DNA from: Verrucomicrobiota bacterium
GTDB taxonomy: Bacteria > Verrucomicrobiota > Verrucomicrobiia > Limisphaerales > J093
DNA length: 64,000 nucleotides
Assembly: GCA_027493615.1 (NCBI GenBank)
Contig: JAOSKK010000012.1
Span: forward strand, 372,001-436,000
Reading direction: 5' to 3'
Positions 12,711-22,634 of the stretch are shown here, piece by piece; within the stretch, counting starts at the first letter, position 1; each line of letters opens with the position of its first letter. The notes under the pieces were generated by a model. That model was not told where the DNA came from and did not search any database. It saw only the letters and a list, made by a program, of their open reading frames with translations. A program made the translations under genes and the position numbers.

Positions 12711-12925
12711 TCAAAGCTCAAGGGAAGCGTCCTGTTCCTTTTGGACCTGCTCAGCGCCCATGAACCGCGGGGGTGCAGGCTGGCAGCCCGCACCACAGGT
12801 TCAGGGAGCGCCTCCCTCAGACCCATCCCCGATGTTCGTGATCGGCGGATAAACCAGCACGGGGAGTTCCTCCACCGATTACGAACATCGGGGATTGGGG
12901 AGTGACGGGTCAGGCGGTCCATGGA
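12711..12925. repeat. Composite dispersed repeat R, long form (about 215 bases)
   Basis: Contains AAGGGAAGCGTCCTGTTCC, GGACCTGCTCA, CCATGAACCGCGG and a REP hairpin (12771-12799). A second palindrome follows: CCGATGTTCGTGATCGG at about 12825 against CCGATTACGAACATCGG at about 12876. It ends GGGGAGTGACGGGTC. It aligns along its full length with 27418-27630. No coding sequence is seen. The first IS110 element starts just beyond it, in a further copy of the GGACCTGCTCA...CCATGAACC module. Confidence 0.8.
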
Positions 12926-12967
12926 GAGTTCCTTGTTCCTTTCGGACCTGCTCACCGGCCATGAACC

Positions 12968-13164
12968 TGGCAGCATCGCCAGCGTGCTGCGACACCAAGA
13001 GCAGTGTGACCGTTCGTATCCTTTGGTGCCTTGTGCCCGGTGGAGAGACTGGTTCCGGTGGTGGACTTCTGCGCATTTTGGTGAGGCCTTGTGGGTTTTC
13101 CCGTTGGGAAGATTTGTTTCTCCCAGAACTCCACCGGGCTTGCGGTGTCGGGGCCAGACAACCT
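12968..13164 (+). ncRNA. Candidate bridge RNA region of element A, copy 1
   Basis: Non-coding left end of an IS110-type element. It shares a roughly 90-base block with the left end of element B, although flanking parts differ: GTGACCGT, GGTGCC, TGCCCGGTGG, GACTGGTTCCGG, CTGCGCA and TTTGG occur in the same order and spacing. Conserved scaffold with variable segments is what a bridge RNA should show. RNA status is inferred from knowledge of IS621; no expression evidence is available. Confidence 0.4.
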
Positions 13165-14511
13165 ATGAATCCAGTCCCAACCCTGCCCGTGCTCAATCCG
13201 CTGGCTGCCTTCGTTGATGTCGGCAGTGAGCAGATGTTTGTCTCCATCGGTGGCGGTCCGCCCGAGGTCTTCGGCACCGTTACCTGCCAACTCCACCGAC
13301 TGCGCGACTGGCTGCAGGCGCGCGGCGTCAAGTCCATCGCCATGGAAGCCACCGGCGTCTATTGGCTGCCCCTCTACGGCGTGCTGGAAGCGGCCGGTTT
13401 GGAGGTCCTGATGGTCAACGGTCGGCAGACCCGTAACCTGCCCGGACGCAAGACCGACATGAAGGACTGCCAATGGGGTGCCACGCTCCATGCCCACGGT
13501 CTGTTGCGTGCGGGCTTCGTGCCCCCGGCCGACATCCGCCGCCTGCAGGACTACGTGCGGCTGCGCACCGATCATCTGACCAGCGCGGCGGCGTGCGTGC
13601 AGCATCAGCAGAAGGCCTTGGAACGGATGAACATCAAACTGCACGATGTCATCAGCAGTCTGGTCGGCACCAGCGGGCAGAAGGTGATCGGGGCGATCCT
13701 GGCCGGCGAGCGTGCTCCGGAGCGGTTGCTGGGGCTGTGCGATGTGCAGATTCGGCAGAAGAAGGCCGCTGAGGTGAAGGAGTCGCTGCGCGGAACTTGG
13801 GCCGAGGAACATCTCTTCGCGCTGCAGCAAGCGGTCGAGGACTGGCAACACTTCCAACGCCAGATTGCGGCGTGTGACCGACAGATCGAAGCGGTGCTGC
13901 ACCAGATCCACGGTCCGGCGTGCCCAGCCCCCGCGGCGGGGACCACACCTGTGGCGGTCAAACGTCCGGGGGTGAACGCGCCACAGATCCCGGGACTGCA
14001 CGGCCTGCTGGTCCGCTTGTGCGGCGGCAAGGATCTCACCGTGCTGCCCGCCCACACCGACTACAGTCTCCTGCAACTGATCGCCGAAGTGGGCACCGAT
14101 TTGAGCCGCTGGGCGACGGAGAAACACTTCACCGCCTGGCTGGGACTGGCCCCGGGCAGCCACCAGAGCGGCAAGCGCCACGGGTCGGTGGGGCGCAAGC
14201 GCAACCGGGCCGGGCGGCTGTTCTGCGTGATGGGACGGAGCCTGGCGCGCAGTAAGCATATCGCCCTGGGTGGTTATTACCGTCGCATGGCTGGGCGGCG
14301 CGGTGGCTTGGTGGCTAACATCGCCTTGGCGCGGAAGCTGGCCGAGTGGTTCTGGCGGGTGATGGTCAAAGGGGTGGAGTATGTCGAACGCGGGTTGGCC
14401 CAGTACGAAGAGCAAGTGCTCGAAACCAAGCGCCGGGCCCTGCAACGCTTGGCCAAACAGCTCGGCCGCGTGGTCCTCCCCAGCCTCGCCGAACTCAAGG
14501 CCGAGGGGTAG
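13165..14511 (+). CDS. IS110-family transposase A, copy 1
   Basis: Intact 448-residue DEDD serine recombinase/transposase. The RuvC-like N-terminal domain shows Asp18 (FVDVGSEQ), Glu61 (MEATGVYW) and Asp98/Asp101 (KTDMKDCQW), matching the family DEDD set. A central coiled-coil region follows (HLTSAAACVQHQQKALERMN). The Transposase_20 C-terminal domain has LGLAPGSHQSGKRHGSVG near residue 330, where the conserved Ser lies. ATG at 13165 follows the structured left end. It acts by guide-RNA-directed exchange without target duplication, by analogy with IS621. Identical at protein level to copy 2; clearly related to, but distinct from, transposase B. Confidence 0.95.
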   Translation: MNPVPTLPVLNPLAAFVDVGSEQMFVSIGGGPPEVFGTVTCQLHRLRDWLQARGVKSIAMEATGVYWLPLYGVLEAAGLEVLMVNGRQTRNLPGRKTDMKDCQWGATLHAHGLLRAGFVPPADIRRLQDYVRLRTDHLTSAAACVQHQQKALERMNIKLHDVISSLVGTSGQKVIGAILAGERAPERLLGLCDVQIRQKKAAEVKESLRGTWAEEHLFALQQAVEDWQHFQRQIAACDRQIEAVLHQIHGPACPAPAAGTTPVAVKRPGVNAPQIPGLHGLLVRLCGGKDLTVLPAHTDYSLLQLIAEVGTDLSRWATEKHFTAWLGLAPGSHQSGKRHGSVGRKRNRAGRLFCVMGRSLARSKHIALGGYYRRMAGRRGGLVANIALARKLAEWFWRVMVKGVEYVERGLAQYEEQVLETKRRALQRLAKQLGRVVLPSLAELKAEG

Positions 14512-14562
14512 GTTCATGGGAAGCGTCCTGTTCCTTTTGGACCTGCTCAGAGGCCATGAACC
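14511..14562. repeat. Palindromic spacer between A1 and B1
   Basis: GGTTCATGG and CCATGAACC bracket 34 bases containing CCTGTTCCTTTTGGACCTGC. It is the core module of composite repeat R. Equivalent spacers are at 16159-16210 (B1/A2) and 17755-17806 (A2/B2). Confidence 0.8.
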
Positions 14563-14587
14563 TGGCAGGGTTGGGCGCGCGCGGCAG

Positions 14588-14769
14588 CTCCCGCAGCGTG
14601 ACCGTCGTTAGATGTGGTGCCATCGGATGCCCGGTGGGAAGACTGGTTCCGGAGGCGGACAACTGCGCAGTTTGGCGAGCACCGGCCGGGTGGTCGGTGT
14701 ATCCCGTTGGAGAGGTTTGTCCTTTCAAGGACGCCTTCGGGCGGGGAGGCGGCCGCGACTTGGACCACG
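14588..14769 (+). ncRNA. Candidate bridge RNA region of element B, copy 1
   Basis: Left-end non-coding region sharing the ordered block GTGACCGT, GGTGCC, TGCCCGGTGG, GACTGGTTCCGG, CTGCGCA, TTTGG and CCCGTTGG with element A. The segments between are divergent. RNA status is inferred by analogy with other IS110 elements. Confidence 0.4.
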
Positions 14770-16105
14770 ATGAATACCACCTTGCCCGTGTTGGATTCGC
14801 AGGCTGCCTTCGTGGACGTGGGCAGCGAACACATGCATGTGTCCATTGCCGGAGGACGGCCGGAAGTCTTCGGGGCCGTGACCGGCGAGTTGCACCGGCT
14901 GCGCGACTGGTTGCAGGCGCAGGGTGCGCTCGGTAGCGATGGAAGCTACCGGCGTGTACTGGCTGCCGCTCTACGGGGTTTTGGAGGCGGCCGGCCTGCG
15001 GGTGCTCATGGTCAACGGCAAGCACACGCGCAACCTGCCCGGGCGCAAGACCGACATGCAGGATTGCCAGTGGGGTGCGACGTTGCATGCCCACGGGTTG
15101 TTGCGGGGCGGCTTTGTGCCGCCGGCGCACATCCGCCGGCTGCAGGACTACCTGCGGTTGCGGCAGGACCATCTGACGCTGGCCGCCAGCCATGTGCAGC
15201 ACATGCAGAAGGCGCTGGAACGGATGAACGTCAAGCTCCACGACGTGATCAGCAACCTGGTGGGCGTCAGCGGGCGGGCAGTGATCGAAGCCATCCTGGC
15301 GGGCGAGCGCCAACCGCTGCGTTTGCTGGCGTTGTGCGATGCGCAAATCCAGAAGCGCAAGGCCGAGCGGGTGCAGGAAGCCCTGCGCGGGACCTGGGCC
15401 GAGGAGCACCTCTTCGCCCTGCGCCAAGCCTGGGAGAGCTGGAAGCACTACCAGGGTCAGATCGCGGCTTGCGACGCGCAGATCCACCAGGTGCTGCAGG
15501 CACTGCAAGCGACCCTCCCCGGTGCGAAGGACCCGGACTCCGGTTCTCCGGGACCGGTCGCTCGCAAGCGACCGGGTCTCCACGCGCCGGTCATCCCGGG
15601 CCTGGACGAGTTGATCCGGCGTTTGTGTGGAGGGCGGGATCTCACCGTCCTGCCGGCCTGCACCTCCTACAGCGTACTGCAGTTGATCGGGGAGATCGGC
15701 CTGGATCTCAAAGCCTGGGCCACGGCCAAGCACTTTACCTCCTGGCTGGGGCTGGCTCCGGGCAGCCACCAGAGTGGCAAACGCCACCGGGGACCGGACG
15801 CAAACGCAACCGGGCGGGGGCGCCTGTTGTGTGTCATGGCCCGCAGCCTGGCCCGGAGCAAGAACATGGCCTTGGGCGGCTTCTACCGCCGCATGGCCGC
15901 CCGCCGTGGTGGGTTGGTGGCGATCATCGCCACGGCACGCAAGCTGGCGGTGTTCATCTGGCAGACGATGGTTAAGGGCCTGGACTTCGTTGAGGCGGGG
16001 CTCGCCCGCTACGAGGCCCGCGTGCTCGAGACCAAGCAGCGCACGCTGCACCGCCTGGCCAAGCAGCTCGGCCTTACGGTGCTGCCCGCCCCCAAGGCCC
16101 AGTAA
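14770..16105 (+). pseudogene. IS110-family transposase B, copy 1 (frameshifted)
   Basis: Same protein as the intact copy at 18013-19350 but interrupted. Two G are missing near 14927 (after residue 54, before the catalytic Glu), one G is missing near 15794 and one G is gained near 15817. The last two cancel, leaving 7-8 altered residues beside the conserved SGKRHRG. Every difference is in a G run, so sequencing error is as likely as real decay. The DEDD residues are otherwise present. Confidence 0.85.
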
Positions 16106-16158
16106 GCGAAGGGGATCAGTCATGACTCCGACGCTGCCGCGCGCGCCCAACCCTGCCA

Positions 16159-16210
16159 GGTTCATGGAGAGTTCCTTGTTCCTTTCGGACCTGCTCACCG
16201 GCCATGAACC
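16159..16210. repeat. Palindromic spacer between B1 and A2
   Basis: GGTTCATGGAGAG, then TTCCTTTCGGACCTGCTCAC and CCATGAACC. It matches the sequence just before element A copy 1 (12920-12967). Confidence 0.8.
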
Positions 16211-17763
16211 TGGCAGCATCGCCAGCGTGCTGCGACACCAAGAGCAGTGTGACCGTTCGTATCCTTTGGTGCCTTGTGCCCGGTGGAGAGACTGGTTCCG
16301 GTGGTGGACTTCTGCGCATTTTGGTGAGGCCCTTGTGGGTTTTCCCGTTGGGAAGATTTGTTTCTCCCAGAACTCCACCGGGCTTGCGGTGTCGGGGCCA
16401 GACAACCTATGAATCCAGTCCCAACCCTGCCCGTGCTCAATCCGCTGGCTGCCTTCGTTGATGTCGGCAGTGAGCAGATGTTTGTCTCCATCGGTGGCGG
16501 TCCGCCCGAGGTCTTCGGCACCGTTACCTGCCAACTCCACCGACTGCGCGACTGGCTGCAGGCGCGCGGCGTCAAGTCCATCGCCATGGAAGCCACCGGC
16601 GTCTATTGGCTGCCCCTCTACGGCGTGCTGGAAGCGGCCGGTTTGGAGGTCCTGATGGTCAACGGTCGGCAGACCCGTAACCTGCCCGGACGCAAGACCG
16701 ACATGAAGGACTGCCAATGGGGTGCCACGCTCCATGCCCACGGTCTGTTGCGTGCGGGCTTCGTGCCCCCGGCCGACATCCGCCGCCTGCAGGACTACGT
16801 GCGGCTGCGCACCGATCATCTGACCAGCGCGGCGGCGTGCGTGCAGCATCAGCAGAAGGCCTTGGAACGGATGAACATCAAACTGCACGATGTCATCAGC
16901 AGTCTGGTCGGCACCAGCGGGCAGAAGGTGATCGGGGCGATCCTGGCCGGCGAGCGTGCTCCGGAGCGGTTGCTGGGGCTGTGCGATGTGCAGATTCGGC
17001 AGAAGAAGGCCGCTGAGGTGAAGGAGTCGCTGCGCGGAACTTGGGCCGAGGAACATCTCTTCGCGCTGCAGCAAGCGGTCGAGGACTGGCAACACTTCCA
17101 ACGCCAGATTGCGGCGTGTGACCGACAGATCGAAGCGGTGCTGCACCAGATCCACGGTCCGGCGTGCCCAGCCCCCGCGGCGGGGACCACACCTGTGGCG
17201 GTCAAACGTCCGGGGGTGAACGCGCCACAGATCCCGGGACTGCACGGCCTGCTGGTCCGCTTGTGCGGCGGCAAGGATCTCACCGTGCTGCCCGCCCACA
17301 CCGACTACAGTCTCCTGCAACTGATCGCCGAAGTGGGCACCGATTTGAGCCGCTGGGCGACGGAGAAACACTTCACCGCCTGGCTGGGACTGGCCCCGGG
17401 CAGCCACCAGAGCGGCAAGCGCCACGGGTCGGTGGGGCGCAAGCGCAACCGGGCCGGGCGGCTGTTCTGCGTGATGGGACGGAGCCTGGCGCGCAGTAAG
17501 CATATCGCCCTGGGTGGTTATTACCGTCGCATGGCTGGGCGGCGCGGTGGCTTGGTGGCTAACATCGCCTTGGCGCGGAAGCTGGCCGAGTGGTTCTGGC
17601 GGGTGATGGTCAAAGGGGTGGAGTATGTCGAACGCGGGTTGGCCCAGTACGAAGAGCAAGTGCTCGAAACCAAGCGCCGGGCCCTGCAACGCTTGGCCAA
17701 ACAGCTCGGCCGCGTGGTCCTCCCCAGCCTCGCCGAACTCAAGGCCGAGGGGTAGGTTCATGG
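16202..17763 (+). mobile_element. IS110-family element A, copy 2
   Basis: Second copy of element A, offset 3243-3244 from the first, with one extra C at about 16331 in the left end. Boundaries are CCATGAACC (16202-16210) and GGTTCATGG (17755-17763). Confidence 0.8.
16409..17755 (+). CDS. IS110-family transposase A, copy 2
   Basis: Intact 448 residues, identical to the copy at 13165-14511 as far as read, with the same DEDD residues and C-terminal Ser motif. Its left non-coding region (16211-16408) is the second candidate bridge RNA locus of this type. Confidence 0.95.
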   Translation: MNPVPTLPVLNPLAAFVDVGSEQMFVSIGGGPPEVFGTVTCQLHRLRDWLQARGVKSIAMEATGVYWLPLYGVLEAAGLEVLMVNGRQTRNLPGRKTDMKDCQWGATLHAHGLLRAGFVPPADIRRLQDYVRLRTDHLTSAAACVQHQQKALERMNIKLHDVISSLVGTSGQKVIGAILAGERAPERLLGLCDVQIRQKKAAEVKESLRGTWAEEHLFALQQAVEDWQHFQRQIAACDRQIEAVLHQIHGPACPAPAAGTTPVAVKRPGVNAPQIPGLHGLLVRLCGGKDLTVLPAHTDYSLLQLIAEVGTDLSRWATEKHFTAWLGLAPGSHQSGKRHGSVGRKRNRAGRLFCVMGRSLARSKHIALGGYYRRMAGRRGGLVANIALARKLAEWFWRVMVKGVEYVERGLAQYEEQVLETKRRALQRLAKQLGRVVLPSLAELKAEG

Positions 17764-17806
17764 GAAGCGGCCTGTTCCTTTTGGACCTGCTCAGAGGCCA
17801 TGAACC
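17755..17806. repeat. Palindromic spacer between A2 and B2
   Basis: As at 14511-14562 but with GCGGCCTG in place of GCGTCCTG, the only substitution noticed between the two tandem units. Confidence 0.8.
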
Positions 17807-19412
17807 TGGCAGGGTTGGGCGCGCGCGGCAGCTCCCGCAGCGTGACCGTCGTTAGATGTGGTGCCATCGGATGCCCGGTGGGAAGACTGGTTCCGGAGGC
17901 GGACAACTGCGCAGTTTGGCGAGCACCGGCCGGGTGGTCGGTGTATCCCGTTGGAGAGGTTTGTCCTTTCAAGGACGCCTTCGGGCGGGAGGCGGCCGCG
18001 ACTTGGACCACGATGAATACCACCTTGCCCGTGTTGGATTCGCAGGCTGCCTTCGTGGACGTGGGCAGCGAACACATGCATGTGTCCATTGCCGGAGGAC
18101 GGCCGGAAGTCTTCGGGGCCGTGACCGGCGAGTTGCACCGGCTGCGCGACTGGTTGCAGGCGCAGGGGGTGCGCTCGGTAGCGATGGAAGCTACCGGCGT
18201 GTACTGGCTGCCGCTCTACGGGGTTTTGGAGGCGGCCGGCCTGCGGGTGCTCATGGTCAACGGCAAGCACACGCGCAACCTGCCCGGGCGCAAGACCGAC
18301 ATGCAGGATTGCCAGTGGGGTGCGACGTTGCATGCCCACGGGTTGTTGCGGGGCGGCTTTGTGCCGCCGGCGCACATCCGCCGGCTGCAGGACTACCTGC
18401 GGTTGCGGCAGGACCATCTGACGCTGGCCGCCAGCCATGTGCAGCACATGCAGAAGGCGCTGGAACGGATGAACGTCAAGCTCCACGACGTGATCAGCAA
18501 CCTGGTGGGCGTCAGCGGGCGGGCAGTGATCGAAGCCATCCTGGCGGGCGAGCGCCAACCGCTGCGTTTGCTGGCGTTGTGCGATGCGCAAATCCAGAAG
18601 CGCAAGGCCGAGCGGGTGCAGGAAGCCCTGCGCGGGACCTGGGCCGAGGAGCACCTCTTCGCCCTGCGCCAAGCCTGGGAGAGCTGGAAGCACTACCAGG
18701 GTCAGATCGCGGCTTGCGACGCGCAGATCCACCAGGTGCTGCAGGCACTGCAAGCGACCCTCCCCGGTGCGAAGGACCCGGACTCCGGTTCTCCGGGACC
18801 GGTCGCTCGCAAGCGACCGGGTCTCCACGCGCCGGTCATCCCGGGCCTGGACGAGTTGATCCGGCGTTTGTGTGGAGGGCGGGATCTCACCGTCCTGCCG
18901 GCCTGCACCTCCTACAGCGTACTGCAGTTGATCGGGGAGATCGGCCTGGATCTCAAAGCCTGGGCCACGGCCAAGCACTTTACCTCCTGGCTGGGGCTGG
19001 CTCCGGGCAGCCACCAGAGTGGCAAACGCCACCGGGGGACCGGACGCAAACGCAACCGGGCGGGGCGCCTGTTGTGTGTCATGGCCCGCAGCCTGGCCCG
19101 GAGCAAGAACATGGCCTTGGGCGGCTTCTACCGCCGCATGGCCGCCCGCCGTGGTGGGTTGGTGGCGATCATCGCCACGGCACGCAAGCTGGCGGTGTTC
19201 ATCTGGCAGACGATGGTTAAGGGCCTGGACTTCGTTGAGGCGGGGCTCGCCCGCTACGAGGCCCGCGTGCTCGAGACCAAGCAGCGCACGCTGCACCGCC
19301 TGGCCAAGCAGCTCGGCCTTACGGTGCTGCCCGCCCCCAAGGCCCAGTAAGCGAAGGGGATCAGTCATGACTCCGACGCTGCCGCGCGCGCCCAACCCTG
19401 CCAGGTTCATGG
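17798..19412 (+). mobile_element. IS110-family element B, copy 2
   Basis: Perfect 34-base inverted repeats at 17798-17831 and 19379-19412, around the intact transposase B. Beyond the right end the sequence changes to GAAGGGGCCACGAACC and then the 3' end of lnt. Confidence 0.88.
18013..19350 (+). CDS. IS110-family transposase B, copy 2 (intact)
   Basis: 445 residues. RuvC-like DEDD residues are Asp16 (FVDVGSEH), Glu59 (MEATGVYW) and Asp96/Asp99 (KTDMQDCQW). The C-terminal LGLAPGSHQSGKRHRGTG carries the conserved Ser. Strongly similar to transposase A through the N-terminal half and more different in the middle (LPGAKDPDSGSPGPVARK) and C-terminus. A and B are therefore separate elements of one subfamily rather than copies. 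Candidate bridge RNA lies at 17832-18012. Confidence 0.95.
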   Translation: MNTTLPVLDSQAAFVDVGSEHMHVSIAGGRPEVFGAVTGELHRLRDWLQAQGVRSVAMEATGVYWLPLYGVLEAAGLRVLMVNGKHTRNLPGRKTDMQDCQWGATLHAHGLLRGGFVPPAHIRRLQDYLRLRQDHLTLAASHVQHMQKALERMNVKLHDVISNLVGVSGRAVIEAILAGERQPLRLLALCDAQIQKRKAERVQEALRGTWAEEHLFALRQAWESWKHYQGQIAACDAQIHQVLQALQATLPGAKDPDSGSPGPVARKRPGLHAPVIPGLDELIRRLCGGRDLTVLPACTSYSVLQLIGEIGLDLKAWATAKHFTSWLGLAPGSHQSGKRHRGTGRKRNRAGRLLCVMARSLARSKNMALGGFYRRMAARRGGLVAIIATARKLAVFIWQTMVKGLDFVEAGLARYEARVLETKQRTLHRLAKQLGLTVLPAPKAQ

Positions 19413-19491
19413 GAAGGGGCCACGAACCACCAGGCGGGAGGCCCCATTGGCGTTTTTCATTCTTCCTTCTGCCTTCCGCGTCGTGCGCCGC

Positions 19492-21288
19492 TCACGTGCG
19501 GCGGCGGGGGCGGAGGCGGGCGACGAGGCCAAAGGCGACGAGGGCGGTGCAGGTCCAGCCGAAGACATCGCCGTGACGCCGGTAGAAGGTCGGGGGCGTG
19601 CGCGGTCCGGCGGCCCAAGGGGCAGGCGGACGCTGAGAAAACCGGGGGCGTAGATGTTGCCGTCGGGCCAGCCGAGGGCTTGGCGGAGGCGGCCGCGCTC
19701 GTCGATCCAGCAGGTGAGACCGTTGTTGGCGCAGCGCACGAGAGGCACACCGTTCTCGATGGCGCGGAAGACGGCGTTGGCGGCGTGCTGGTATTGGGCG
19801 GCGCTTTCCCCGAACCAGCCGTTGTTCGTGAGGTTGAGGAGGAAGTCGGTATCCGGGGTGACATGGAGGCGGGTGTCCCGGGCGAAGACGTCCTCGAAGC
19901 AGATGAGGACGGAGAGGTTGACGGGGGGGTTGGTGAGGACGAACGGGACGGGGCCGGGGCCGGGGGTGAAGCTGCCTTCGATGGGGGTGAAGTGCTTCAG
20001 GAACGGCAACCAACGTTCGAGGGGGATGTACTCGCCGAAGATCACGAGGCGCTGTTTGCGATAGGTGGTGCGGTAATGGCCCGTGGGATCGAAGAGAAAG
20101 GCGCTGTTGTAGGCGTCGAAGCCGCCCTCGGGACGTCGCTCCGCGTCATCGGCGCCGAGGATCATCCAGATGCGGTGATGGGCGATGAGGTCGATGAGTG
20201 CGCGGTAGTCGGCGTCGCTGAGGTTGGGGAGGGAGGCTTCGGGCCAGACGAGGAGGTGGGGTTGGGCGGCGAGGGCGAGGGAGCTGAGGTCGAGGAGCTG
20301 ACGGAAGCGGTTGGTGGCTTCGCGGTCGTCCCAGAGGAGGCGTTGCGGGATGCTGGGCTGGACGAGGGCAAGGCGTAGTTCGCGGGGGGTGGTCGACGGG
20401 GCTGACCAGTTGGCGGGCGCCCCAGAACGTGACGGTGAGGACGGCGAGCAGCGGCAGGCCGAGGTCGGTGAACATCGGCAGCCGCAACGAGGCCAGGGGG
20501 CCACCCGAGGTGGGGGCGAGCGCGGGCGGGAGCAGGGCGCGCGGCTGACTCGAAGGGAAGCCAGGCGAGGAAGGGGCGGCGACACGGAAGGCGAGACGCA
20601 CCGAGGCGAGCAACAACGCCACGGAGGACCAGACGACGAGAAAGGACACACCGGGAACGCCGGTGACCGACGCGATCTGGAGGAGGGGGTGAGCTGGTGC
20701 TGCGAGACCCCCAGCGGCTTCCAGGGAAACCGCTGAAGAGGTGGTCCGTGATCATGTCGGTGGTGACCCACGCGGCGGCACAGAACAGCCCCCAAAGAAG
20801 GCGGGAAACCCAGGGGAGCATGGCGACCGACTGAAGAGGAGCCAACCAGCGTGGCAGGTCGTCCGCGGGCGTTGGGGCCGGCGAGGCGGGGGAAACCCGT
20901 GGCGCGGGAAGAACCGCCAGCACAGCCAGACCCATAGGGCGGGGTAGAGGGCGAGGTACGCGCTGAGGGCCAGCCAGCCGGCCACCGCGCCGGCGGGGAA
21001 AGGGATGTGCAGCAGCCAGCGCAGGGCGATGAAGTTGTGGCAGAGACCGGCGAGGTAGCCCAGGCGGAAGACGTGCCCACCGCGAGTGCCGGCGGTTGCG
21101 AGGAGGAGGAGGCCGGGGGCAACCCAAGCCAGCCCGGCCCAGCCCGGCAAGGGAAAAGCCAGGGCCAGGGCCGTGCCGGCGGCGGCGGCGAGTAGGGCGC
21201 GACCGGTGCACCATGCATTGCGAACCCAGCGCAGCAAGGGCGAAGCTTGGCGCAGCACGAAGCCAAGGCAAGCCGTGAAAGGCGGCAC
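19492..21288 (-). CDS. lnt: Apolipoprotein N-acyltransferase, frameshifted
   Basis: Inner-membrane enzyme that adds the third acyl chain to lipoproteins. The N-terminal half is a run of membrane segments (ALLAAAAGTALALAFPLPGW, LAWVAPGLLLLATAG, FLVVWSSVALLLASVRLAF). The C-terminal half is a nitrilase domain with LLVWPEASLPN (catalytic Glu), TYRKQRLVIFGEYIPLERWL (Lys), SVLICFEDVFARD (catalytic Cys) and LLNLTNNGWFG. The GTG at 21288 is the likely start, 59 bases after the macB permease stop. Frame changes near 20860, 20700, 20390 and 19610. It terminates 80 bases from the IS array. Last gene of the tolC-macAB-lnt run. Confidence 0.9.
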
Positions 21289-21346
21289 GCGGCTGGCCCC
21301 GGCCGATGGACGGGGATCCTCGGGGCGTGGGGCGGCCGGGCTCGTG

Positions 21347-22634
21347 CTACTCGTGGCGGAGGGCCTCGATGGGATCGAGGTTGGCGGCGGCGCGGGCCGG
21401 GTAGAGACCGAAGACGATGCCGACGGCACCCGAGATGCCGAAGGCGAGCAGCACGGACCAGGGCGTGACGATGGTGGGCATCTTGGTGAGATGCGTCACC
21501 ACCACCGGGGTCACGACGCCGACGAGGACGCCGATCAGCCGCCGCCGACGGAGAGGACGACGGTCTCGACGAGGAACTGGGTGACGATGTCGCGCTTCTT
21601 GGCGCCGAGGGCACGGCGCACGCCGATCTCGCGGGTGCGCTCGGTGACGGTGGCCAGCATGATGTTCATGATGCCGATGCCGCCGACGAGCAGCGAGATG
21701 GCGGCGATGGAGCCCAGCACGATGTTGAACGTGCGCTTGGTTTCCTCGGCGGCACGGAGCAGTTCGAGGGGTACGATGACCTCGTAGTCGTTCTGGTCGT
21801 GGAAGCGGTCCAGGACCGTCTTGATCTGGGGATCAGCGGTTTCGACGGCGGCGAGGTCCTGCATCTGCACGATGATGCGGTGCAGCTCCACTTTCTCGGC
21901 CTGGAAACTGCCGGCGGAACGGCGGATCAGGACTTCGCCGAACCGGACGCGCGAAGTGGAAAGCGGGATATAGACGTTGTTGTCGAGGGCTCGCCCTCCA
22001 TCTGGCCGGTCTGGGGTCGCTGGTCGGACGCGCTGGTCTCCTGGATGATGCCGACGACGCGGTAGTAGAACTCGCCGATCTTCACGGCGTGGAGAAGCGG
22101 ATCCTGGTAGGGGAAGAGACGGCGCGAAAGGCCGGCGGTGATGACGCAGACGTTGTTCTGCCAGGTCTCGTCCATCTGGCAGAGAAAGCGGCCGCGGAGG
22201 AGATCGATGCGGGTGACCTCGGGGTAGAAGGGGAGCGTGCCGATGACCTGGCAGGGAACCTCGTTGCGACTGAAGCGCACGCTTTCGCGGATGATGCGCA
22301 TCGGCAGGACGCGCCGCACGCCGGGGATGGTGGACTGGAGGCGGGCGCCGTCCTTGTAGGTGAGGCCGTAGTCGATCTGGAAGCTGCGCATGGAGGCGCC
22401 GGACTGCGCGGCCTCGGCGGCCGGTTTGAGGCTGTTGATGAGGACGTTGTTGCTGCCGAGCTTCTTGATGCGTTCCTGGGCCTCGTAGGAGGCGCCTTCA
22501 CCGATGGCGAGCATGGCGATGACCGAGCAGACGCCGAAGATGATGCCGAGCATGGTCAGCACCGAGCGCAGCTTGTGGAGCAGCAGGCTCTTGAAGCCGA
22601 GCTTGACGGTGCTGATGAACTGGATGCGCAGCAT
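21347..22634 (-). CDS. macB: MacB-type ABC transporter permease, frameshifted
   Basis: FtsX/MacB-fold permease. The first membrane segment follows the N-terminal cytoplasmic helix ([20 protein letters not shown]). A large periplasmic MacB-PCD domain comes next ([20 protein letters not shown]), then three C-terminal segments beginning [20 protein letters not shown]. The classic [20 protein letters not shown] follows, and the end is DPIEALRHE. Two frame changes (near 21960 and 21537). It follows the ATPase gene by 3 bases. Partner of the adaptor and outer-membrane channel upstream, forming a tripartite macrolide/lipopeptide-type efflux pump; substrate unknown. Confidence 0.9.

What the first reader, a model, noticed from the sequence alone, without database searches (positions are those of the whole stretch)
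12968..13164. Left ends of A and B look like two versions of one bridge RNA scaffold
The non-coding left ends of A (12968-13164) and B (14588-14769) share an ordered block (GTGACCGT, GGTGCC, TGCCCGGTGG, GACTGGTTCCGG, CTGCGCA, TTTGG, CCCGTTGG) with divergent stretches between. IS110-group bridge RNAs combine a conserved fold with variable target and donor loops. Comparing two sister elements in the same target gives a direct way to see which loop bases matter.
Basis: partly seen in the sequence, partly recalled or inferred. Interest (0 to 1): 0.7.

Follow-up and report, generated by a model that had tools for sequence, protein, structure and literature searches.

The report
Two jumping genes that target each other
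Two related mobile DNA elements sit head-to-tail, and each carries a small guide RNA whose address label matches the tail end of the other, which would explain why they are stacked alternately and gives a natural test of how these RNA-guided elements choose where to land.

Summary
The shared blocks are real, and the left ends of A and B very probably encode IS110-type bridge RNAs. Twenty-six related left ends share one covarying fold of two adjacent stem-loops. A starts at 12929 and B at 14524; both end in GGTTCATGG+NNAG. Loop 1 holds a 7-nt target guide equal to the left flank in 19 of 23 elements (1.1 when permuted). Loop 2 holds a donor guide whose last four bases equal the element's own right end in 19 of 20. 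Empty sites in Cupriavidus place the crossover at or just after AG.

A and B carry swapped guides: A's target guide TGGAGAG is B's right end, and B's target guide TGGGAAG is A's right end. They do not share a target; each is addressed to the other's tail, which fits the A-B-A-B array. Nine of 11 A copies sit on right ends of B or of miniature elements with B-type ends, one of which lies just left of A1. Both guides lie 3' of the inner hairpin, the reverse of IS621. Right-hand guides, transcription and activity are not shown. Bridge RNA is known; I found no report of mutual addressing.

The parts
12728..12928 (+). 201-bp miniature element without a gene, with B-type ends: left flank GGGAAG, first bases CGTCCTGTTCC, right end CCATGGAGAG, which is the target A1 landed on
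   Evidence: 10 complete copies parsed in the genome: left flank GGGAAG 10/10, CGTCCTGTTC start 8/10, right-end tetrad AGAG 4/10; mobilisation not tested
12922..12928 (+). target half-site of A1 (TGGAGAG, left of the crossover)
   Evidence: equals target guide of A at 13041-13047
12929..14523 (+). element A1
   Evidence: ends fixed by comparing 11 A copies at different sites
12999..13147 (+). bridge RNA region of A1
   Evidence: covariance model R1 hit, 129 bits; fold supported by covariation
13041..13047 (+). target guide of A, TGGAGAG
13100..13111 (+). donor guide of A, CCCGTTGGGAAG
   Evidence: tetrad equals A right end
13165..14511 (+). IS110 recombinase gene of A, 448 aa
   Evidence: PF01548 + PF02371; NF033542
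14511..14523 (+). right end of A1, GGTTCATGGGAAG; also the target of B1
14524..16171 (+). element B1 (recombinase frame broken by small indels in G runs)
14593..14750 (+). bridge RNA region of B1
14635..14641 (+). target guide of B, TGGGAAG
14703..14714 (+). donor guide of B, CCCGTTGGAGAG
   Evidence: tetrad equals right ends of B1 and of the B copies on C2 and C39
16159..16171 (+). right end of B1, GGTTCATGGAGAG; also the target of A2
16172..17767 (+). element A2 (target guide 16284-16290, donor guide 16344-16355)
   Evidence: one base different from A1
17768..19416 (+). element B2 with intact recombinase 18013-19350 (target guide 17879-17885, donor guide 17947-17958); its right end reads GAAG, not AGAG

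Best explanation
A and B are two IS110-family insertion sequences whose non-coding left ends encode bridge RNAs. Each RNA has a target-binding stem-loop and a donor-binding stem-loop. A 7-nt target guide (N5AG) directs the element to the matching sequence ending at an AG core; a donor guide (TTGG+NNAG) recognises the element's own right end GGTTCATGG+NNAG. In A and B the guides are swapped: A targets TGGAGAG and ends in TGGGAAG, B targets TGGGAAG and ends in TGGAGAG, so each is addressed to the other's right end. Alternating insertion, possibly helped by tandem duplication, built A-B-A-B. Miniature elements with B-type ends, presumably moved in trans by B, supply most other A targets. Shown by sequence: element ends, fold covariation, guide matches, swap, junctions, empty sites in one relative. 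Inferred: transcription, binding to the recombinase, strand pairing, activity, order of insertions, trans mobilisation. Not shown: right target and right donor guides.
For: Recombinase family. Element ends from 11 A copies and B copies at different sites. Fold: 32 pairs, 94.8% of cells paired, 18 pairs with double changes, no shuffle of 500 reaching any measure, sliding drops pairing to 34-50%. Target guide equals own left flank in 19 of 23 elements, permuted mean 1.1, maximum 6. Donor guide tetrad equals own right end in 19 of 20, permuted mean 6.8, maximum 15. Ten of ten empty Cupriavidus sites read GCGGGAGAG|GGGCAGGG. Array junctions A1-B1, B1-A2, A2-B2 and B-A on C39 match the swapped guides. 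9 of 11 A copies on B-type right ends, no A-A junction.
Against: No transcript, binding or activity data. Sigma-70 scan of the region found nothing. Right-hand guides not detectable. B2 carries A's tetrad at its right end. All copies are nearly identical, so a tandem duplication of one A-B pair is possible. The two A copies outside repeats (L006, L010) show that A also lands elsewhere.
Confidence: 0.85

Rival explanations
1. The crossover lies upstream, at GG, so that AGAG belongs to A's left end and GAAG to its target; loop 1 would then read the element and loop 2 the target.
For: Fits the A copies taken alone, and the GAAG after B2.
Against: In Cupriavidus, ten of ten empty sites read GCGGGAGAG|GGGCAGGG while the occupied site reads GCGGGAGAG|element|GGTTCATGGAAAG|GGGCAGGG, so the tetrad on the left is target. 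Relatives with quite different target guides keep the same right end GTTCATGGNNAG.
Confidence: 0.04
2. The bridge RNAs and guides are as described, but the reciprocity is coincidence: right-end tetrads are few, both elements happen to prefer GGNNAG sites, and the array is a tandem duplication by homologous recombination rather than alternating insertion.
For: Right-end tetrads are mostly AAAG, AGAG, GAAG. A1/A2 are nearly identical, and so are B1/B2. Self-stacked copies exist in Chlorobiaceae and Caballeronia.
Against: 5 of 24 target guides are TGGNNAG against about 0.4 expected; alternation recurs at other loci with miniature elements (C23, C12) and as B-A on C39; no A-A junction seen.
Confidence: 0.3
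3. The conserved left ends are only mRNA leaders or recombinase-binding DNA, not guide RNAs.
For: The left end of the IS110-family element ISPpu9 was studied as a regulator of transposase expression (PMC8450116, abstract only). No transcript evidence here.
Against: Stems covary while the loops track left flank and right end element by element, which a passive leader or a fixed binding site would not do.
Confidence: 0.03

Closest known systems
IS621 bridge RNA and recombinase, IS110 group (PMC11208160, PMC11208158)
   Same: RNA encoded in the long left end; target-binding stem-loop followed by donor-binding stem-loop; left guides match the top strand of target and donor up to a dinucleotide core; DEDD plus Transposase_20 recombinase; scarless insertion between core sites.
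   Different: Core AG instead of CT; left guides lie 3' of the inner hairpin in both loops, where IS621 has them 5'; left target guide 7 nt instead of 9; no right target guide detected; recombinase about 448 aa.
IS1111 group and its seekRNA (PMC11187229)
   Same: Bottom-strand match on the 3' side of the loop, the order reported for IS1111 seekRNAs; inverted repeats near the ends (GGTTCATGG / CCATGAACC).
   Different: RNA upstream of the gene, not downstream; repeats set in asymmetrically, about 4 bp from the right end and about 30 bp from the left, not 3 and 7 bp.
[quoted passage not shown]
   Same: A member of the wider family uses the end of another mobile element as its target.
   Different: One-way, and the victim is a different type of transposon; here two sister elements are addressed to each other's right end.
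ISEc11/ISXne4, natural reprogramming (PMC11187229)
   Same: Related elements that differ in the guide segments and in the target accordingly.
   Different: No exchange of target and donor guides between the two is described there.

Membership tests
IS110 family | Recombinase with N-terminal DEDD domain (PF01548) and C-terminal Transposase_20 (PF02371) | tested here: met
   both domains above the gathering score in A and B; NF033542 'IS110 family RNA-guided transposase' above cut-off
IS110 family | C-terminal motif G--P----SG with the conserved serine | tested here: met
   GLAPGSHQSG in both proteins (read)
IS110 family | Insertion without target duplication or loss | tested here: met
   Cupriavidus occupied site L181 against ten empty sites; not tested for A and B themselves
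IS110 group (as against IS1111) | Long left non-coding end that carries the RNA, short right end | tested here: met
   left end about 236-245 bp, right end 12 bp (A) and 66 bp (B) after the stop codon
Bridge RNA, general | Two internal loops, one matching the target and one matching the element's own ends | tested here: met
   left-side guides only:
Bridge RNA, general | Right target guide and right donor guide | tested here: inconclusive
   no significant covariation; weak cluster for the right target at alignment columns 24-26, z about 2
IS621-type bridge RNA | Left guide on the 5' side of the inner stem-loop in each loop | tested here: not met
   left guides lie 3' of hairpins P2 and P4
IS621-type bridge RNA | CT core dinucleotide | tested here: not met
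   guides and ends share AG at the boundary
IS1111 group | RNA downstream of the gene; subterminal inverted repeats with 7 and 3 bp extensions | tested here: not met
   RNA upstream; repeats about 30 and 4 bp from the ends
Bridge RNA, general | Transcribed RNA that binds the recombinase and is required for recombination | not testable with these tools
   needs RNA sequencing and a recombination assay
Miniature element mobilised by an IS110-family element | Short element without a gene that has the ends and the target of the partner element | tested here: met
   201-bp repeat: left flank GGGAAG 10/10, start CGTCCTGTTC 8/10, right-end tetrad AGAG 4/10; movement itself not tested

The most novel reading that the evidence does not exclude
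A and B form a mutually addressed pair kept by selection: each target guide equals the other's donor end and differs by two bases from its own, so the two elements and B's miniature derivatives serve as landing pads for one another while avoiding self-insertion. The RNA would also be a left-end bridge RNA with reversed guide order and a one-sided 7-nt address.
Probability: 0.45. Interest if true: 0.78.

Novelty: new variant of a known kind. Interest (0 to 1): 0.62.

Why it matters
It is a ready natural experiment on bridge RNA addressing: two RNAs on one scaffold with target and donor guides exchanged, in one genome, with many occupied sites. It suggests a 7-nt left guide with an AG core and little right-side specificity, a reversed guide order inside the loops, and a way in which alternating arrays and miniature elements arise. 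It makes testable whether IS110 elements can be addressed to each other's ends, and whether one element can move another's gene-less derivatives.

Tried and rejected
Rfam search of the window: no hit at gathering threshold. My first reading (crossover at GG, loops reading right-hand sequence) was dropped after relatives and empty sites. Single-sequence folding was uninformative, z about -1.4. Covariation scan for right target and right donor guides was not significant; apparent matches of A (GAACT) and B (GGACGC) to their own first bases did not generalise. Sigma-70 scan: nothing. No solved relative found by sequence with one protein as query. Viral contigs gave only four relatives. A search of 299 genomes in the family of the Cupriavidus genome found the RNA model in only 4. 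Searches for tandem or reciprocal IS110 elements and for IS110 miniature elements found no such report in the held library, judged from titles and abstracts; the library is incomplete.

Full report
What is there. The window holds four IS110-family elements head to tail: A1 12929-14523, B1 14524-16171, A2 16172-17767, B2 17768-19416. The recombinases (448 and 445 aa, 74% identical) match PF01548 and PF02371 and NCBI's 'IS110 family RNA-guided transposase'. The genome has 11 near-complete A copies and four B copies; the left part of the B copy on contig C39 is unreadable.

Element ends. Comparing A copies at different sites shows constant sequence from TTCCTTGTTCC to GGTTCATGGGAAG, with variable DNA outside. 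A B copy on contig C2, at a non-repeat site, runs from CGTCCTGTTCC to GGTTCATGGAGAG.

Where the crossover is. A copies alone allow two readings of the tetrad before the boundary. Relatives decide it. A Cupriavidus element sits in the palindromic repeat CCCTCTCCCGC..GCGGGAGAG|GGGCAGGG, and all ten empty copies matching TGCGGGNNAGGGGCAGGG in that genome read AGAG. So the left flank runs through AG, and AG is the likely core. My earlier reading, with the crossover at GG, is rejected.

Fold. Twenty-six left ends (A, B and 24 relatives, some of them close to one another) were aligned. RNAalifold proposed two adjacent stem-loops, with 13 of 26 pairs changed on both sides. I refined the hairpins by eye and counted 32 pairs: 94.8% of cells pair, 18 pairs have double changes (8.6 in shuffles), no shuffle of 500 reached any of the five measures, and sliding the partners drops pairing to 34-50%. 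The refinement used the same alignment, so the percentage leans towards it; the double changes are the stronger evidence. The covariance model finds exactly the A and B copies in the genome and matches in all 22 relatives' genomes or records, as expected since most of them trained it.

Guides. Loop 1, 3' of hairpin P2, holds N5AG. Its last 7 bases occur in the element's own left flank in 19 of 23 distinct elements, against a permuted mean of 1.1 and maximum of 6; with 8 bases only 3 match. The four misses are near matches or, in L081, an element whose left end is interrupted and whose guide matches further upstream. Loop 2, 3' of hairpin P4, holds CCCG[CT]TGG+NNAG. Its tetrad equals that of the right end GTTCATGGNNAG in 19 of 20 elements; permuted mean 6.8, maximum 15. 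Two single copies, B2 and Cupriavidus L181, whose right end differs from that of sister copies, were left out of that count and are discussed below. By analogy with IS621 (PMC11208160, PMC11208158) these are the left target guide and left donor guide, which pair with bottom strands. In IS621 the left guide precedes the inner stem-loop; here it follows it. That is the order reported for IS1111 RNAs (PMC11187229), although the RNA lies upstream of the gene as in IS110. No right guide could be shown.

Reciprocity. A has target guide TGGAGAG and a donor guide ending GGGAAG; B has target guide TGGGAAG and a donor guide ending GGAGAG. Each target guide equals the other's right end and differs from the element's own by two bases. 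The array joins accordingly: A1's GGGAAG is B1's left flank, B1's GGAGAG is A2's, and A2's GGGAAG is B2's. Contig C39 shows B then A. Of 11 A copies, two sit on B right ends, four on right ends of a 201-bp miniature element, two on a 92-bp one and one on an 86-bp one; two sit elsewhere. The 201-bp element has B's left flank (GGGAAG, 10/10) and mostly B's first bases (8/10), while its right-end tetrad is AGAG in 4/10. The copy in the window, 12728-12928, is what A1 landed on. C23 carries miniature-A-miniature-A, and C12 miniature-A-miniature, there with an altered A right end. No A-A junction was seen.

Chance or not. Right-end tetrads are few, so a match between two TGGNNAG guides is not very improbable once both are of that form. 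But 5 of 24 target guides are TGGNNAG against about 0.4 expected. In Cupriavidus one element (guide TGGGTAG) sits on another's right end CATGGGTAG. In Chlorobiaceae L066 and Caballeronia L131 the same element is stacked on its own right end. Targeting right ends of the same group is thus recurrent; the exact exchange seen in A and B is the special case. Copies are nearly identical, so tandem duplication of an A-B pair cannot be excluded for this array.

Unexplained. B2 ends in GAAG although its donor guide reads AGAG. The Cupriavidus copy L181 ends in AAAG, the tetrad of its partner element, although its donor guide reads GTAG. Both could be scars of losing a downstream partner between two GGTTCATGG copies; this is a guess.

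Novelty. Bridge RNAs, their left-end location and targeting of repeats are known, and family members that target another transposon's ends are known (IS4321/IS5075, cited in PMC11187229). I found no report in the held library of two IS110 elements with exchanged guides, nor of IS110 miniature elements like these, but coverage is partial and I judged from titles and abstracts. Durrant et al. show diverse bridge RNA structures in a figure I could not see, so the reversed guide order may already be known. I file it as a new variant of a known kind.

Noticed in passing
window 12728-12928; contigs C23, C12 and many further places in the genome: Dispersed miniature elements (201, about 92 and about 86 bp) with B-type ends. 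94 places match GGACCTGCNCANNNNCCATGAACC with up to one mismatch, including the A and B left ends.
   Followed up: partly
window 19404-19416; L181: Right ends that carry the partner element's tetrad instead of the one in the own donor guide (B2 in the window, a lone copy in Cupriavidus).
   Followed up: partly
L182 (Cupriavidus), L066/L183 (Chlorobiaceae), L131 (Caballeronia plasmid): Stacking of related elements right end to left end in other genomes: one element on another's right end, or on its own.
   Followed up: partly
window 14524-16171: B1's recombinase frame is broken by small indels in G runs that B2 and the C2 copy lack; could be assembly errors or decay.
   Followed up: no
G000 contig C39, about 41.2-41.5 kb (L016 1240-1500): Long poly-G stretch before a B copy, probably an assembly fault; it hides that copy's left end.
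   Followed up: no
window 19407-21614, minus strand: The array's right edge abuts the 3' end of a long ORF that looks like apolipoprotein N-acyltransferase (lnt; judged by eye, not searched).
   Followed up: no
left ends of relatives, e.g. L064 2215-2265: Conserved motif C[TC]GCNCACGGACC[AT]TGAAC..GGTA, about 30 bases, upstream of the RNA in nearly all relatives; could be its promoter or a recombinase site.
   Followed up: no
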